DNA from: an uncultured Solirubrobacterales bacterium | GTDB taxonomy: Bacteria > Actinomycetota > Thermoleophilia > Solirubrobacterales > Solirubrobacteraceae | Direction: 5' to 3' | DNA: 40,460 bases | NCBI GenBank assembly: GCA_903821395.1 | Contig: CAIJLJ010000100.1 | Coordinates: forward strand, 1-40,460 | Part shown: positions 12,010 to 26,477 of the stretch, piece by piece | Position numbering within the stretch: position 1 is the first letter of the stretch | How the letters are laid out: each line of letters starts with the position of its first letter | Notes under the pieces: generated by a model | What the model was told of the DNA's origin: nothing | The model's input: only the letters and a program-made list of their open reading frames with translations | The model's database searches: none | Translations under genes and position numbers: made by a program

Positions 12010-12097
12010 CGGAGGGGGCGGGATTCGAACCCGCGGTCCAGGGTTACCGGACTCCGGTTTTCAAGACCGGTGCATTCGACCACTCTGCCACCCCTCC
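12010..12097 (-). tRNA. tRNA-Ser (anticodon TGA)
   Basis: On the minus strand the 88-base gene folds as a type II tRNA. The acceptor is GGAGGGG pairing with CCCCTCC, with discriminator G. The D arm is followed by the anticodon stem CCGGT/ACCGG around the loop CTTGAAA (anticodon TGA at 12063-12061), a long variable arm, and T arm GCGGG TTCGAAT CCCGC. The long variable arm and G73 are serine identity features. CCA is not encoded. It reads UCN-type serine codons. Confidence 0.97.
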
Positions 12098-17695: not shown

Positions 17696-17784
17696 CGGAG
17701 AGGGCGGGATTCGAACCCGCGAACGAGGTTACCCCCGTTACTCGCTTAGCAGGCGAGTGCCTTCAGCCTCTCGGCCACCTCTCC
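17696..17784 (-). tRNA. tRNA-Ser (anticodon GCT)
   Basis: This 89-base type II tRNA is on the minus strand. The acceptor is GGAGAGG pairing with CCTCTCC with discriminator G73. The anticodon stem CTCGC/GCGAG surrounds the loop CTGCTAA (anticodon GCT at 17750-17748). A long variable arm and the T arm GCGGG TTCGAAT CCCGC follow. CCA is not encoded. It reads AGC and AGU serine codons. Confidence 0.97.
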
Positions 17785-20756: not shown

Positions 20757-20830
<74 letters not shown>

Positions 20831-20944: not shown

Positions 20945-21481
20945 CTAAGTGAGCCAACCGATTGCGCCCTCGAGGTTGGCGCCAGACATCTTCGCGCCGC
21001 GCAGGTCAGCGTCCTCGAGGTTCGCGCCTTGAAGGTTCGCGTTGCGGAACTTTGCGCGGCGAAAGTCGCTGCCGCGCAAGTTGGCTGAGCCGAGGTCGCT
21101 GTCATCGAGGTTGGCGCGCCCTGCCTCGACTTGGCTTAGGTCGGCGCGGCTCAGGTCGGCGTGGCGCAACTCGGCGCGGCTTAGGTCCGCGCCGGCGAGC
21201 TGCGTGCCAACCAGCTTCGCCTCGATCAGCTCGGCGCAGAACATGCTGGCATCGCGCAGGTCGGCTCCGCTTAGGTCGGCGCCACGCATGTCGGCGTGCT
21301 CAAGGCCCACTTCGCGCAGGTCTGCACCCTGGAGATTTGCGCCAGTGAGGTCGGCACCAGAGAGGTTCTCGCCGCTGAGATTGGCACCGGAGAGGTTGGC
21401 GTCTCGGAGATGTGCTCCGGCCAGTTTCCGCCCCCGAAGGTCCTGCCCACTTAGGTCCTGCCCACTGAGATTTACGCTCAT
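20945..21481 (-). CDS. pentapeptide-repeat protein
   Basis: The 178-residue protein is almost wholly built from five-residue units with the A(D/N)LSG pattern, beginning LSGQDLSGQDLRGRKLAG and running to residue 170 or so (about 30 units). Such sequences form a right-handed quadrilateral beta helix. There is no signal peptide or membrane helix, so it is likely cytoplasmic. Known members include DNA-mimic gyrase protectors and structural adaptors, but repeats alone do not tell which. A purine-rich AGAGAGAGAG lies upstream of the ATG at 21481 as a ribosome binding region. It is divergent from the heliorhodopsin gene across 91 bases. Confidence 0.92.
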   Translation of the reverse strand: MSVNLSGQDLSGQDLRGRKLAGAHLRDANLSGANLSGENLSGADLTGANLQGADLREVGLEHADMRGADLSGADLRDASMFCAELIEAKLVGTQLAGADLSRAELRHADLSRADLSQVEAGRANLDDSDLGSANLRGSDFRRAKFRNANLQGANLEDADLRGAKMSGANLEGAIGWLT

Positions 21482-21572
21482 AGTTGCTCTCTCTCTTCCC
21501 TTAGCCTAGTCGGCTGGCCCAAACGGGGCAAATGAGCGCCTGTGATCCGCGGCAATCGCTAGCTTCCTTCGA

Positions 21573-22364
21573 ATGAGTGATTCGGAAGTAACTCCACTAG
21601 ACGACCGCACGACAGGCAAGCTCCGCCGCCTCAACGTGATCGTCGGCCTCGTCGCCGCAGCGCAGGCGGTCGTGCTGCTGATAATCGCCAAGCCCGCATC
21701 GCTGCCGGTCAACATGACTTACATGCTCGGGCCTCCCGGCGAGGGCAAGTACAGCTCGCCGACGGAGCTCTTTGGGCTGCGGATTGACATTGCCGTAGCC
21801 CTCTTCCTACTTCTGGCGGCAGCCGATCACCTAATCGTCGCGAGTCCCATAGCCAACCGCTGGTACAACGCAAATGTGGCGCGCGGGATCAACCCGGCGC
21901 GCTGGTGGGAGTACTCGATCAGTGCGTCGCTGATGATCGTGCTGATCGCGATGTTGACCGGGATCAGCCAAGCGACAGCGCTGATCGCAATCTTTGGCGT
22001 CAACGCCTCGATGATCCTCTTCGGGCTCGTAATGGAGTACGTCAACGAGGGCCGCGAGACGGTCGACTGGCGCCCGTTCATCTACGGCTGCATCGTCGGC
22101 GCGGTGCCGTGGGTTGCGGTTGCGCTCCAGCTCTTCCCGATCAACCTCAAGAGCGGCGGGCACGCGCCGACCTTCGTCTACTTCATCTTCTTCACGCTCT
22201 TCATCCTCTTCAATACGTTCGCGATCAACATGTGGCTGCAGTACCGTCGCCGCGGGCGTTGGGCCAGCCCGGTCCACGCCGAGCGCGTCTACCTCTGGCT
22301 CAGCTTGATTGCCAAGAGCGTGCTCGCTTGGCAGGTCTATGGCGGCGCTCTGGCTGGCAGCTAG
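21573..22364 (+). CDS. heliorhodopsin
   Basis: This 263-residue seven-helix protein matches heliorhodopsins, a retinal-binding family with inverted membrane topology (N terminus inside) and no known ion transport in most members. Hallmarks are RWWEYSISASLMIVLIA in helix 3 (Arg110 and counterion Glu113), IFGVNASMILFGLVMEY in helix 4, FVYFIFFTLFILFNTFAI in helix 6, and LSLIAKSVLAWQV in helix 7. Lys248 in the last is the expected Schiff-base lysine (Lys241 in the reference heliorhodopsin 48C12) and Glu113 corresponds to its Glu107. The extracellular loop after helix 1 has MTYMLGPPGEG as in the family. His86 matches one conserved His (His80), while the other (His23) appears to be Ala28 here. No Shine-Dalgarno precedes the ATG. 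Retinal synthesis genes are not in the window. Confidence 0.95.
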   Translation: MSDSEVTPLDDRTTGKLRRLNVIVGLVAAAQAVVLLIIAKPASLPVNMTYMLGPPGEGKYSSPTELFGLRIDIAVALFLLLAAADHLIVASPIANRWYNANVARGINPARWWEYSISASLMIVLIAMLTGISQATALIAIFGVNASMILFGLVMEYVNEGRETVDWRPFIYGCIVGAVPWVAVALQLFPINLKSGGHAPTFVYFIFFTLFILFNTFAINMWLQYRRRGRWASPVHAERVYLWLSLIAKSVLAWQVYGGALAGS

Positions 22365-22397: not shown

Positions 22398-23000
22398 ATG
22401 AGTCAGGAGCTGGTCGTGATAGAGGTTGGCCGCGAGGAGCCGCGCAGCGATCAAGGCGGCGGCGTCTTCGGTCTTATCGGCCGCGTCGCCAGCTTTGGCG
22501 TGCGCTCCACAGGCGATGCGATCGAGGCCGTGATCGGCTCCGACGCGGTTGAGGACAGCATTGACCGCCTGCTCAGCAGCCCGGCGATCGAGCGCCTAAT
22601 CCAGACCGCGCTGAGTGGCCCACTTGTTGATGCACTGAGCCGCGAGCTCGTGCGCCAGCGGGTCGTTGAGCGAATTACGACAACGCTGATTGAGGCTGGC
22701 GTCTTTGAGCCGATCATCGACGCCTTCCTCGAGCGGCCTGAGCTGTGGGTTTTAGTCGAGGAGATTGCGCAGAGCCCGTCGGTCAGCGACGCGATCCGCC
22801 AGCAGAGCTTCGGCTTCGCCGATCAGGTTGGTGATGAGGTCCGCGGCCGCAGTCGCAGCGCCGATGACATTCTCGCTCGCGCAGCGCGCCGCCTAGTTGG
22901 TCGCCGCGGCCAGATGGCTGCGCAGATGCCTTCCGATCACGACGCCCACATCGAGGGCAGCGAGCAAGCCAGCACGGCCGCGGGCGAGGAGAAGAAGTGA
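22398..23000 (+). CDS. helical protein of unknown function, next to heliorhodopsin
   Basis: The 200-residue product has no signal peptide or clear transmembrane helix. After a short acidic start and VFGLIGRVASFGV it forms helix-like units in a loosely repeated pattern: AIERLIQTALSGPLVDALSR, VVERITTTLIEAGVFEPIID and ELWVLVEEIAQSPSVSDAIR. A basic segment (ARAARRLVGRRG) and a Gln/Glu/Lys tail follow. I do not recognise the family. The start is ATG 22398, 33 bases after the heliorhodopsin stop, and its stop overlaps the RDD gene start as GTGA. The three genes could be one transcript. Confidence 0.7.
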   Translation: MSQELVVIEVGREEPRSDQGGGVFGLIGRVASFGVRSTGDAIEAVIGSDAVEDSIDRLLSSPAIERLIQTALSGPLVDALSRELVRQRVVERITTTLIEAGVFEPIIDAFLERPELWVLVEEIAQSPSVSDAIRQQSFGFADQVGDEVRGRSRSADDILARAARRLVGRRGQMAAQMPSDHDAHIEGSEQASTAAGEEKK

Positions 23001-23674
23001 CAAGCGCCGCCTCCAGCAACGAGCAACCCCCGATTGAGGCTCAGACGCCATCCGAACTTGACACGGCGACCAACCGTGCTCAGGTCGAAGCGGCTGTGCG
23101 GCTACGCGGATCTGCCGCCGTCAAGGGCGCGCCTCAGCGCTACGTCGGGCTGGTCACACGCCTACTTGGCTTCGTCGTAGATGTTCTCGTGATCAACCTC
23201 GTTGCTGCGTTCAGCTGGGCCGTTGTCGCGCTAACGATGTCGGCGCTGAACGTCCCCGACAAAGTTGACTCAGCGATCGTCGGGATCATGGGGATCCTCT
23301 ACCTGATCTGGGCCGGCGGCTATTTCGTCGCTTTCTGGAGCGGGACCGGACAAACCCCTGGAGCAAGAGCGCTCGAGTTTCGCGTCGTTGATGCCGAGGA
23401 CGGAAAGCCAATCAAGCTTGGCCGGGCCTTGGCACGGCTGGCCGGGATGCTGCTCGGCGCGCTGCCCTTCTTCGCCGGCTACATCGTTGGCCTCTTCAAC
23501 GCGCGCTGCCGCTGCCTGCTCGACGTATTCGGCGACACGGTCGTGATCGACGCTCCCGTCTACACCGTCGCCGACCGCCGCAGGATGGCCCGCGAAGCGA
23601 CAACCAGCCAATACACTCCGCGCCACAGCGCAGTCGAGCAGCGGATCAAGTCAGACAGCTCCGACGCTTTCTGA
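22997..23674 (+). CDS. RDD family membrane protein
   Basis: The 225-residue protein has a polar N-terminal tail and a RDD domain. RYVGLVTRLLGFVVDVLVIN opens helix 1 (the usual Arg-Asp-Asp positions read R, D here), with helix 2 around GIMGILYLIWAGGYFVAFW. It continues with the family's GQTPGARALEFRVVDAEDG, a helix rich in Leu, and the closing DVFGDTVVIDAP. RDD proteins are small membrane proteins of uncertain role, some proposed in ion exchange. The start is GTG at 22997, overlapping the previous stop. The tail after 195 is Ser and charge rich. Confidence 0.87.
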   Translation: MTSAASSNEQPPIEAQTPSELDTATNRAQVEAAVRLRGSAAVKGAPQRYVGLVTRLLGFVVDVLVINLVAAFSWAVVALTMSALNVPDKVDSAIVGIMGILYLIWAGGYFVAFWSGTGQTPGARALEFRVVDAEDGKPIKLGRALARLAGMLLGALPFFAGYIVGLFNARCRCLLDVFGDTVVIDAPVYTVADRRRMAREATTSQYTPRHSAVEQRIKSDSSDAF

Positions 23675-23717: not shown

Positions 23718-24083
23718 ATGCCAGTAGACCCAGGCCCAGAGGACGTAAAGCGCTACGTCGAGGAAGACGACGGCGGTCCCGTCGTGATGCTCAACATGCT
23801 CAAGTACAAGGCCGACGGCGGCCGCGAAAGCTACGCCGAGTACGGCGCGAAGGTGATGGACTTCCTGAACGAGGTTGGAGCCGAAATTCTTTACGCCAGT
23901 GAGGCATCAACGGCGCTCGTCGCCCCCGACGGCTGGGACTGGGACGCAGTGATGCTGATCCGCTATCCGAGCCGAGCGAAGTTCCTTGAGATGGTCACCA
24001 ACCCCGGATACCAGGAGATCGGGCACTTTCGCACCGAGGGCCTCGATGAGGCAATCCTGCAGGCAACGAAGCCGTTGATGTAG
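23718..24083 (+). CDS. DUF1330 domain protein
   Basis: The 121-residue protein shows the DUF1330 pattern: GPVVMLNMLKYKADGGRESYAEY in the first strand and helix, then VGAEILYASEAS, WDAVMLIRYPSRAKFLEM and NPGYQEIGHFRTEGLDEAIL. It is a ferredoxin-like alpha/beta dimer fold of unknown chemistry. A purine-rich AGAGGA 6 bases before the ATG at 23718 supports the start. It leads the DegT aminotransferase by 14 bases, which may be its operon partner. Confidence 0.87.
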   Translation: MPVDPGPEDVKRYVEEDDGGPVVMLNMLKYKADGGRESYAEYGAKVMDFLNEVGAEILYASEASTALVAPDGWDWDAVMLIRYPSRAKFLEMVTNPGYQEIGHFRTEGLDEAILQATKPLM

Positions 24084-24097
24084 GCAATGAGATCTAG

Positions 24098-25084
24098 ATG
24101 AGCGACTTCAGCCAGTTTTCAATCGGTTTCGACCAGCGCGACCGCGCCCGTCTGCACGAGCTTTGGGACGGCGTAATTGACTCCCAGCGCTGGTCGGAGG
24201 GCGACCTGACAGCGGCATTTGAAGCAGCCTGGAGCGAGCTTCACTCGATCGGTTCGGTTGCCTTCTCGGGCTGGACCGGAGCCGCGCTCGCAGCGCTGGA
24301 GTTCGCCGGCGTACGCGGCGAAACGGTGCTCTGCCCGTCGAATACCTTCATGGCGACGCCAAACGCCGCGATCAGCGCCGGAGCAAACGTCGTATTCGTT
24401 GACTGCAACCGAGAAGACCTCTGCATGTCGTTCGACGATTTCGAGGCCAAGGTCGCTGAACACAAGCCCAAGGCCGCGATGCTCGTTCACATCGGCGGCC
24501 ACATCGCCTTTGACGTCGAACGGATTGCCGCGCTCTGCAAGGAGCAGGGAATCTTCCTGATCGAGGATTGCGCTCACGCCCACGGAGCGACCTGGAATGG
24601 AAAGCGGCCCGGCTCGTGGGGTGACGCAGGCGTCTATTCGTTCTATGCCACGAAGACGATCTCAACCGGCGAAGGCGGAATGCTCGTCAGCAGCAACGAG
24701 GAGCTACTCGAGTTTGCGCGCCACTTCCGTAACTACGGCAAGCCTGACTACGCGAACTTTGGCCTCAACTTCCGGCTAAGCGAATTCACGGCGGCGATCG
24801 GACTGGTCCAGACCGAGCGACTTGAGGAAATAGTCGCTTGGAAACAGGAAATCGCTCGTACGGTGCTTGATCCGGCACATCCAAATAGGCTCAAAATGCC
24901 CGAAGGCATGGGCTCTGGCTACTACAAGTACATAGTCTTCGACGAAGTCGACCGCTCGACCGGTAAGGTCTATGACGAACCTTGTCACCGGATAATGGGA
25001 ATCGACGTCGAACTACCCAATACCGACTGGGTTGCAACGAACCACTGGTGCGTACCACTCTATTACCAGCCTAATACAGACTGA
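24098..25084 (+). CDS. DegT/DnrJ/EryC1/StrS family aminotransferase
   Basis: This PLP-dependent aminotransferase of nucleotide-sugar type has 328 residues. Landmarks are SGWTGAALAALEFAG (cofactor phosphate loop), CPSNTFMATPNAAISAGA, IEDCAHAHGATWNGK with Asp157, YSFYATKTISTGEGGM with the Schiff-base Lys186, and NFGLNFRLSEFTAAIG. The family catalyses transamination of keto sugars bound to UDP, dTDP or GDP for surface glycan or natural-product sugars. The C terminus stops at about 40 residues short of typical members, just after NHWCVPLYY. The next gene (a sugar-nucleotide epimerase) follows in 16 bases, so both probably act in the same glycan pathway. The substrate cannot be told. Confidence 0.88.
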   Translation: MSDFSQFSIGFDQRDRARLHELWDGVIDSQRWSEGDLTAAFEAAWSELHSIGSVAFSGWTGAALAALEFAGVRGETVLCPSNTFMATPNAAISAGANVVFVDCNREDLCMSFDDFEAKVAEHKPKAAMLVHIGGHIAFDVERIAALCKEQGIFLIEDCAHAHGATWNGKRPGSWGDAGVYSFYATKTISTGEGGMLVSSNEELLEFARHFRNYGKPDYANFGLNFRLSEFTAAIGLVQTERLEEIVAWKQEIARTVLDPAHPNRLKMPEGMGSGYYKYIVFDEVDRSTGKVYDEPCHRIMGIDVELPNTDWVATNHWCVPLYYQPNTD

Positions 25085-25100
25085 TCGGATCTAAAACGCA

Positions 25101-26477
25101 ATGAAAGTACTCGTAACCGGCGGATCGGGCTTCATCGGCTCACATGTCGTTGACCAACTTGTTGAGGCTGGCCACAAGCCGGTCATCTACGACCGCCTCC
25201 CATCGCCATTCCGCGATGACATCCAGACCGAACTGGGCGAGCTCAGCGATCTGACAATGCTTGAACTGGCAATGAGCGGCTGCGATGCCGTGATGCACCT
25301 TGCCGCCGCCGCCGACGTGAACGAAGTTGCGAAGATGCCGGTCGAATCCGAGGCTGCCAACGCCCGCGGAACACTCAACGTCCTTGAGGCTGCGCGCGGC
25401 GCAGGCGTCAAGCGCGTCATCTACGCCAGCACGATCTGGGTCTACACCGGTGAGTCCGGTGAGCGCGTTGACGAGGAGAGCAACCTCGGCATGCCAAACC
25501 ACCTTTACACGGCCTCAAAGCTGGCCGGCGAGATGTACTGCCGCAGCTACAACGAGCTCTACGACCTTGAGTTCACGGTTCTCCGCTTCGGGATCCCCTA
25601 CGGCCCACGCGCCCGGCCAGCAGCCGTCGTGCCAGCATTCGTCGGTAAAGCAATGGACGGTCAGCCTTTGACCGTTGCCGGCGCTGGCGATCAGTCACGC
25701 CGTTTCGTCTACGTCGAAGACCTAGCTTCAGGCTGCGTCAAGGCGCTCGACCCGGTAGCCGCCAACCGCACATACAACCTCGTCAGTGACAGCTCGGTCA
25801 CGATCCTTGAGATCGCCGAGCTGGTCCAAGAGCTCGTTGCCCCAACCGGGATCGAGTACACCGAGCAGCGCACCGCCGATTACGTCGGCGTCGAGGTAAG
25901 CGGCGTCCGTGCCGAAGAGGAGCTCGGCTGGACGGCAGAGACATCCTTCGCCGACGGCGTGAGCCGCTACGTCGAATGGCGCCGCGAGGACGAGGCTCTC
26001 GCGCCGGTATCGCTTCAAAGTTCCACGGCCGCGGTAGCAACCAAGAGCATCTCCGATGCCGTTCTGCGCGTTCGCAAGAGCACTGCCACAGCGCTCGCCT
26101 ACGCGGTCGGCTCACTGGCGATCCTCACCGCTTACGTGATCGCGATCGACTCGCTCGGCCTGCCTGATGCTCAGGTTGGCACGCTCGCCGTGACGATGAG
26201 CGCGGCCCTTGGCGTCTTCCTATCAATCGAGCTGCTGTGGTCGAATCCAAAGACCCGCACGCTCTCTGCGATTACTGCCAGCCTGATCTCTGCGGCCTTC
26301 GTCTTTGCCGTCTTGACGCCTTGGGGCCACAAGATGTTCCACCTTGCAACGCCGAGCCGCTCGGTCATCATCCTCACGATTACTGGTGTTGCGCTGGTGA
26401 TCGCGCTGGCCAGCGCCGGGATTTCCCTGGCGCGCAGGCGCGGCCTTATCGCCGAAGGCGCCCGCGCTCGCGCCTAA
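25101..26477 (+). CDS. NAD-dependent sugar epimerase/dehydratase fused to a four-helix membrane domain
   Basis: Residues 1-295 form an extended SDR: the NAD site VTGGSGFIGSH (5-15), DAVMHLAAAADV (62-73), and the catalytic Tyr136 and Lys140 in YTASK, with GDQSRRFVYVEDLA near 197-209. This is the type of UDP-glucose 4-epimerase or dTDP-glucose dehydratase, with unknown substrate. Residues 327-445 then hold four membrane helices (about 331-349, 360-380, 387-405, 421-444) and a short basic tail, which is unusual. No frameshift or stop separates the parts. It converges on the next gene with a 4-base overlap. The enzyme would be held on the cytoplasmic face of the membrane. Confidence 0.85.
   Translation: MKVLVTGGSGFIGSHVVDQLVEAGHKPVIYDRLPSPFRDDIQTELGELSDLTMLELAMSGCDAVMHLAAAADVNEVAKMPVESEAANARGTLNVLEAARGAGVKRVIYASTIWVYTGESGERVDEESNLGMPNHLYTASKLAGEMYCRSYNELYDLEFTVLRFGIPYGPRARPAAVVPAFVGKAMDGQPLTVAGAGDQSRRFVYVEDLASGCVKALDPVAANRTYNLVSDSSVTILEIAELVQELVAPTGIEYTEQRTADYVGVEVSGVRAEEELGWTAETSFADGVSRYVEWRREDEALAPVSLQSSTAAVATKSISDAVLRVRKSTATALAYAVGSLAILTAYVIAIDSLGLPDAQVGTLAVTMSAALGVFLSIELLWSNPKTRTLSAITASLISAAFVFAVLTPWGHKMFHLATPSRSVIILTITGVALVIALASAGISLARRRGLIAEGARARA

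What the first reader, a model, noticed from the sequence alone, without database searches (positions are those of the whole stretch)
21573..22364. Heliorhodopsin in an actinobacterial context
The gene encodes a full-length heliorhodopsin with the retinal Lys248, the counterion Glu113 and helix motifs of the family. Heliorhodopsins are retinal photoreceptors with inverted topology and mostly unknown output. Such genes are known in related actinobacteria, but the function and partners in each locus are open. The absence of retinal-synthesis genes here means retinal must come from elsewhere in the genome or from outside.
Basis: partly seen in the sequence, partly recalled or inferred. Interest (0 to 1): 0.85.

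Follow-up and report, generated by a model that had tools for sequence, protein, structure and literature searches.

The report
Heliorhodopsin in a freshwater actinobacterium
This is a genuine heliorhodopsin, a retinal-bound light-sensor protein of known type, from a lake or reservoir Solirubrobacterales bacterium that seems to need retinal from outside; the one unusual detail is that its lineage lost a histidine thought to relay the proton after light absorption.

Summary
Window 21573-22364 (+) encodes a complete 263-residue heliorhodopsin: Pfam 295 bits, NCBIfam 'HeR' equivalog 286 bits (cut-off 100), no type-1 match, and a predicted fold 1.5 A from HeR 48C12. Lys248 (retinal) and Glu113 (counterion) are correctly placed. 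The genome belongs to a group of aquatic Solirubrobacterales MAGs and also carries a DTG-motif type-1 rhodopsin. No known retinal-forming dioxygenase or CrtI was found; none of 29 HeR-positive genomes among 151 in the order-level sample has Blh/BCD. Imported retinal is therefore likely.

Three details are added. (1) His23, part of the proton-relay chain of 48C12, is Ala28 here. It is lost in this clade (Ala) and in a second Solirubrobacterales clade (Phe), while the rest of the chain is intact. (2) The gene has a conserved leaderless promoter, -10 TANNNT exactly 7 nt before ATG. (3) HeR heads a collinear cluster with an unknown helical protein and an RDD membrane protein. That pair is older, occurs without HeR in at least 17 relatives, and other HeRs of the order lie elsewhere, so partnership is unproven.

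Verdict: new member of a known family.

The parts
21573..22364 (+). heliorhodopsin gene, 263 aa; E113 counterion, K248 retinal lysine, A28 in place of His23 of 48C12
21560..21565 (+). putative -10 element TAGCTT, 7 nt before the ATG: leaderless promoter of the heliorhodopsin gene
   Evidence: TANNNT at exactly 7 nt in 7 of 7 clade members; 39 of 80 HeR loci have TANNNT 6-8 nt upstream of a start against about 3 expected from control positions. No sigma-70 -35/-10 pair was found by consensus scan.
22398..23000 (+). U200, 200-aa helical protein of unknown function, 33 bp after HeR; member of an old U200-RDD gene pair
   Evidence: no Pfam match; 58 of 151 relatives have a homologue; next to RDD in 21 of the 22 distant loci checked; low-confidence all-helical model
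22997..23674 (+). RDD-family membrane protein, overlaps U200 by 4 bp
   Evidence: PF06271 9.4e-18
23718..24083 (+). DUF1330 protein, collinear
   Evidence: PF07045 9.6e-8; order kept in 8 close genomes where the contig reaches it
24098..25084 (+). DegT/DnrJ/EryC1 sugar aminotransferase, collinear
   Evidence: PF01041 1.5e-66
25101..26477 (+). NAD-dependent sugar epimerase/dehydratase, collinear
   Evidence: PF01370 2.5e-51
20945..21481 (-). pentapeptide-repeat protein, divergent from HeR across a 91-bp intergenic stretch
   Evidence: PF00805 2.6e-63; the divergent pair is kept in the clade

Best explanation
The gene makes a heliorhodopsin: a seven-helix membrane protein, N-terminus in the cytoplasm, that binds all-trans retinal at Lys248 with Glu113 as counterion and acts as a green-light sensor with a slow photocycle rather than as a pump. 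The protein and its ligand-binding anatomy are shown by sequence and predicted fold. Topology, non-pumping and slow photocycle are inherited from the family. The retinal is probably taken up from retinal-producing neighbours (inferred). Light isomerises retinal, the Schiff-base proton moves to Glu113 and His86, and the cytoplasmic network Asn21-Tyr98-Glu237-Arg110-Glu155 loosens, changing a cytoplasmic surface read by a partner (inferred from 48C12 simulations). The branch towards the extracellular Trp253 through His23 is broken here (Ala28), so the cycle may be altered. The gene is transcribed from its own leaderless promoter, probably as first gene of a cluster with U200 and RDD; those two are the leading but unproven partner candidates.
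For: Family profiles and PDB match. AlphaFold model pLDDT 90.5, TM 0.91 and 1.5 A to 48C12. All network residues of 48C12 named in PMC9726877 kept except His23 (and Ser76, Ala in most relatives). A28 is one clade of 7 (100/100) and F28 one clade of 10 (100/99 in the drawing, 100/100 in the group table). Type-1 rhodopsin in the same genome. No BCD, RPE65 or CrtI over cut-off; 0 of 29 HeR-positive genomes with BCD, with a positive control in two relatives. Promoter spacing 7 of 7. Collinear cluster kept in 8 genomes. Other HeRs act on neighbouring-gene products (PMC9529153, PMC9769723, PMC11109279) and have been proposed as sensors (PMC8612252).
Against: No histidine kinase or other known transducer was recognised among the adjacent genes scanned here. 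The U200-RDD pair occurs without HeR in at least 17 genomes, and the order's other HeRs have different neighbours, so the cluster may be chance linkage kept by recent descent. A viral HeR is a proton transporter (PMC9448325), so non-pumping is not universal. The assembly is 94% complete, and an unknown retinal-forming enzyme cannot be excluded.
Confidence: 0.72

Rival explanations
1. It is a heliorhodopsin sensor, but U200, RDD and the downstream genes have nothing to do with it; its output is a protein encoded elsewhere. (This disputes only the partner step of the best explanation.)
For: U200-RDD is an older pair found without HeR. HeR neighbours differ in almost every other lineage: DPRP photolyase-like, TerC, MMPL, DUF3891. 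HeR has its own promoter.
Against: Tight collinear spacing (33 bp, then a 4-bp overlap in the window) kept in 8 genomes at 85-94% HeR identity, which may only reflect recent common descent; one of them (L049) has a wider HeR-U200 gap.
Confidence: 0.5
2. It transports ions (protons) in the light, as reported for the viral V2HeR3.
For: One viral HeR does so (PMC9448325). Losing His23 could in principle reroute the Schiff-base proton.
Against: The closest structurally characterised relative, 48C12, shows no pumping (family literature, PMC8612252). All polar gate residues of 48C12 are kept. The cell already has a DTG type-1 rhodopsin that could pump.
Confidence: 0.06
3. It is a degenerate or unused opsin that rarely holds retinal because the cell cannot make any.
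For: No known retinal-synthesis route.
Against: Intact frame, invariant pocket residues and 85-94% conservation in the clade argue for selection. HeR binds external retinal quickly (TaHeR, cited in PMC9296517), and retinal auxotrophy with rhodopsins is common in freshwater actinobacteria (PMC12422013).
Confidence: 0.05

Closest known systems
Heliorhodopsin 48C12 (PDB 6su3, 6su4, 6uh3)
   Same: Whole length, fold (1.5 A, 41% identity), Lys, Glu counterion, ESL and SxxxK motifs, His80, Arg104, Glu149, Glu230, Gln26, Trp246.
   Different: His23 is Ala28, Ser76 is Ala82, and the colour-tuning Gln148 and Gln213 are Met154 and Met220, the pattern of HeRs absorbing below 540 nm in PMC7807009.
AbHeR-glutamine synthetase, TfHeR-photolyase and OcHeR-OmrDE systems
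   Same: A heliorhodopsin followed by a same-strand gene.
   Different: Here the neighbours are U200 and an RDD protein, not among the ten operon groups listed in PMC11109279. The U200-RDD pair is also found without HeR.
Type-1 microbial rhodopsins (PF01036)
   Same: Seven helices, retinal lysine in the last helix, counterion in the third; distant structural matches at 5-9 A.
   Different: No profile match for the window protein. The genome's own type-1 rhodopsin is a separate gene (G000:C128).

Membership tests
Heliorhodopsin (PF18761, NF038020) | profile match above curated cut-off over full length | tested here: met
   295.1 bits against 26.7, profile 1-242/242; 285.6 against 100
Heliorhodopsin (PF18761, NF038020) | SxxxK in TM7 and ESL in TM3 (criteria in PMC8612252 and PMC9601134) | tested here: met
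   S244/K248; E113/S117/L124
Heliorhodopsin (PF18761, NF038020) | seven-helix fold with two-stranded first extracellular loop | tested here: met
   model with strands 43-48 and 64-70; TM-score 0.91 to 48C12
Heliorhodopsin (PF18761, NF038020) | inverted topology, N-terminus inside | not testable with these tools
   follows from homology to 48C12 only
Heliorhodopsin (PF18761, NF038020) | retinal binding and slow photocycle | not testable with these tools
   needs expression and spectroscopy
Heliorhodopsin (PF18761, NF038020) | His23/His80 pair of 48C12 (common, not a defining feature of the family) | tested here: not met
   His80 equivalent H86 kept; His23 equivalent is Ala28; H in 61, F in 10, A in 7, L in 1 of 79 aligned
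Type-1 rhodopsin (PF01036) | profile match above cut-off | tested here: not met
   no match at E<0.1
HeR operon with a published regulated partner (glutamine synthetase, photolyase, ABC transporter and others) | one of the published partner genes adjacent on the same strand | tested here: not met
   neighbours are U200 and RDD; list of groups in PMC11109279

The most novel reading that the evidence does not exclude
Two Solirubrobacterales heliorhodopsin lineages have each discarded the His23 proton-relay residue while keeping the other fixed residues of the chain. In the window's lineage the signal therefore leaves only through the cytoplasmic gate, flanked by clade-specific Tyr156, Glu159 and His235, to control the U200-RDD membrane system: a new HeR output and a natural separation of the cytoplasmic from the extracellular signalling branch.
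Probability: 0.1. Interest if true: 0.6.

Novelty: new member of a known kind. Interest (0 to 1): 0.3.

Why it matters
The family's output and the role of His23/His80 are open questions. Published work uses the artificial H23F mutant of 48C12, which slows the photocycle. Here are natural proteins with Ala or Phe at that site and an otherwise intact network, so the role of that branch can be tested on proteins that selection has kept. The lineage also seems to be a retinal auxotroph carrying both a type-1 rhodopsin and a heliorhodopsin, which adds Solirubrobacterales to the freshwater groups that may depend on shared retinal.

Tried and rejected
Type-1 identity was rejected. The idea that U200 is a dedicated HeR transducer was weakened when the U200-RDD pair turned up without HeR in at least 17 relatives. 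The U200 model was too poor to search (pLDDT 52.8). A sigma-70 consensus scan found no promoter; the leaderless -10 was found by alignment instead. The SQS/PSY gene on contig C172 was considered as carotenoid evidence, but its best NCBIfam match is HpnD, below cut-off, and no CrtI exceeds its cut-off, so a carotenoid route is not supported. Natural variation at His23 was not found described in the papers held, but the original 2018-2020 structure papers are not held (for one of them).

Full report
IDENTITY. Window 21573-22364 (+) encodes 263 aa. Pfam heliorhodopsin PF18761 matches end to end at 4.7e-88 with no type-1 rhodopsin match. NCBIfam's HeR equivalog scores 285.6 bits against a cut-off of 100. 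Among PDB sequences only heliorhodopsins match. K248 and E113 are the retinal lysine and the counterion by alignment to 48C12 K241 and E107 and are invariant in 81 heliorhodopsins.

ORIGIN. The nearest named records (84-93% identity) are MAGs, several from lakes and reservoirs by their isolate names, labelled Solirubrobacteraceae or Actinomycetota. The window is a whole 40,460-bp contig of a 1.98-Mb, 94%-complete assembly. Among 151 genomes sampled from genus to order, 29 have HeR above the cut-off. The tree places the window in a 28-row clade (100/99), nearly all labelled Solirubrobacterales, Thermoleophilia or Actinomycetota, consistent with mostly vertical descent within the order.

HIS23. 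In 48C12 a chain His80-His23-water-Gln26-Trp246 runs to the extracellular side, and His80-Asn16-Tyr92-Glu230-Arg104-Glu149 to the cytoplasmic side; H23F slows the photocycle (PMC9726877). In the window, Asn21, Gln31, His86, Tyr98, Arg110, Glu155, Glu237 and Trp253 are all kept, but His23 is Ala28. Of 79 rows with a letter there, 61 have His, 10 Phe, 7 Ala and 1 Leu. Ala is one clade (the window's) and Phe another (a second Solirubrobacterales group); each needs one change on the tree (column 28 itself was among the 269 columns used). Ser76, another relay residue in that paper, is Ala in most of these proteins. Other residues peculiar to the Ala clade lie in the first extracellular loop (47, 48, 59, 68) and beside the cytoplasmic gate residues (156, 159, 235) (topology from the family). 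The two Gln colour-tuning sites are Met154 and Met220, the pattern of HeRs absorbing below 540 nm (PMC7807009). That is a prediction, not a measurement.

RETINAL. The assembly has no BCD/Blh, no RPE65-type oxygenase and no CrtI above cut-off. The BCD profile works in this order: it finds genes in two relatives, one of them 1 kb from a type-1 rhodopsin gene. None of the 29 HeR-positive genomes has BCD, and 5 have an RPE65-type gene. The same assembly has a type-1 rhodopsin with a DTG motif and DLTAK; all 15 type-1 rhodopsins read (this one and 14 in relatives) are DTG. Import of retinal is the simplest reading and is precedented in freshwater actinobacteria (PMC12422013); an unknown enzyme or the missing 6% of the genome is not excluded.

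PROMOTER. The 91-bp stretch between HeR and the divergent pentapeptide-repeat gene carries TAGCTT at 21560-21565, 7 nt before the ATG. Six relatives have TANNNT at exactly the same spacing. Across 80 HeR loci, 39 have TANNNT 6-8 nt before a start, against about 3 expected from control positions 30-35 nt upstream. This is the signature of leaderless transcripts, common in Actinobacteria (general knowledge). It supports the start codon and suggests that HeR has its own promoter.

NEIGHBOURHOOD. Downstream, on the same strand, follow U200 (33 bp away), an RDD-family membrane protein (4-bp overlap), DUF1330, a DegT aminotransferase and an epimerase. The order is kept in eight genomes of the Ala28 clade, as far as contigs reach. 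U200 homologues occur in 58 of 151 genomes and adjoin RDD in 21 of the 22 distant loci checked, without HeR beside them; 17 of those genomes have no HeR at all. So HeR lies beside an older pair. Elsewhere in the order HeR sits directly before a DPRP (photolyase-related) gene in three genomes, two confirmed by Pfam and one by homology, and before TerC in one. Photolyase and TerC are already on the published list of HeR neighbours (PMC11109279), and HeR-photolyase enhancement has been measured in Trichococcus with a class II CPD enzyme (PMC9769723).

MECHANISM. Shown: a complete, conserved heliorhodopsin with its pocket intact and a promoter-like element of its own. Inferred from the family: inverted topology, retinal Schiff base at K248, slow cycle, no pumping, sensor role. 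Inferred here: retinal import, a possibly altered cycle from Ala28, and signal output at the cytoplasmic loops. The partner is open; U200 and RDD are candidates by position only.

VERDICT. A new member of a known family in a lineage for which the papers held gave no freshwater Solirubrobacterales rhodopsin report. The His23 replacement is the part worth a specialist's time.

Noticed in passing
G000:C128:13216-14004 (L032:1477-2265): A type-1 rhodopsin with DTG motif and DLTAK in the same genome as the heliorhodopsin; all 14 type-1 rhodopsins read in related genomes also carry DTG.
   Followed up: partly
L185:6007-6765 and L189: Two Halanaerobiales MAGs carry nearly identical heliorhodopsins, and both assemblies also have an Omp85/BamA gene. 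[quoted passage not shown]
   Followed up: partly
L046:9596-11089, L073:7325-8830, L074:1-1215: In three genomes of a second Solirubrobacterales family (Phe at the His23 site) HeR is directly followed by a DPRP photolyase-related gene, within about 10 bp.
   Followed up: partly
L020 / L052 (G046:C1:1839899-1840623): The heliorhodopsin of one single-contig relative is split over two overlapping frames, a frameshift or sequencing error.
   Followed up: no
L115, L116, L152, L156, L171: Public records titled 'Bifidobacterium breve' group with aquatic actinobacterial MAGs by their heliorhodopsins (and, for L115 and L116, neighbours); the organism name looks wrong.
   Followed up: no
window 22398-23674: U200-RDD is a widespread uncharacterised gene pair in the order. 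U200 has no Pfam family, seems to repeat internally and is predicted all-helical with low confidence.
   Followed up: partly
window 12010-12097, 17696-17784, 20757-20830: Three tRNA genes.
   Followed up: no
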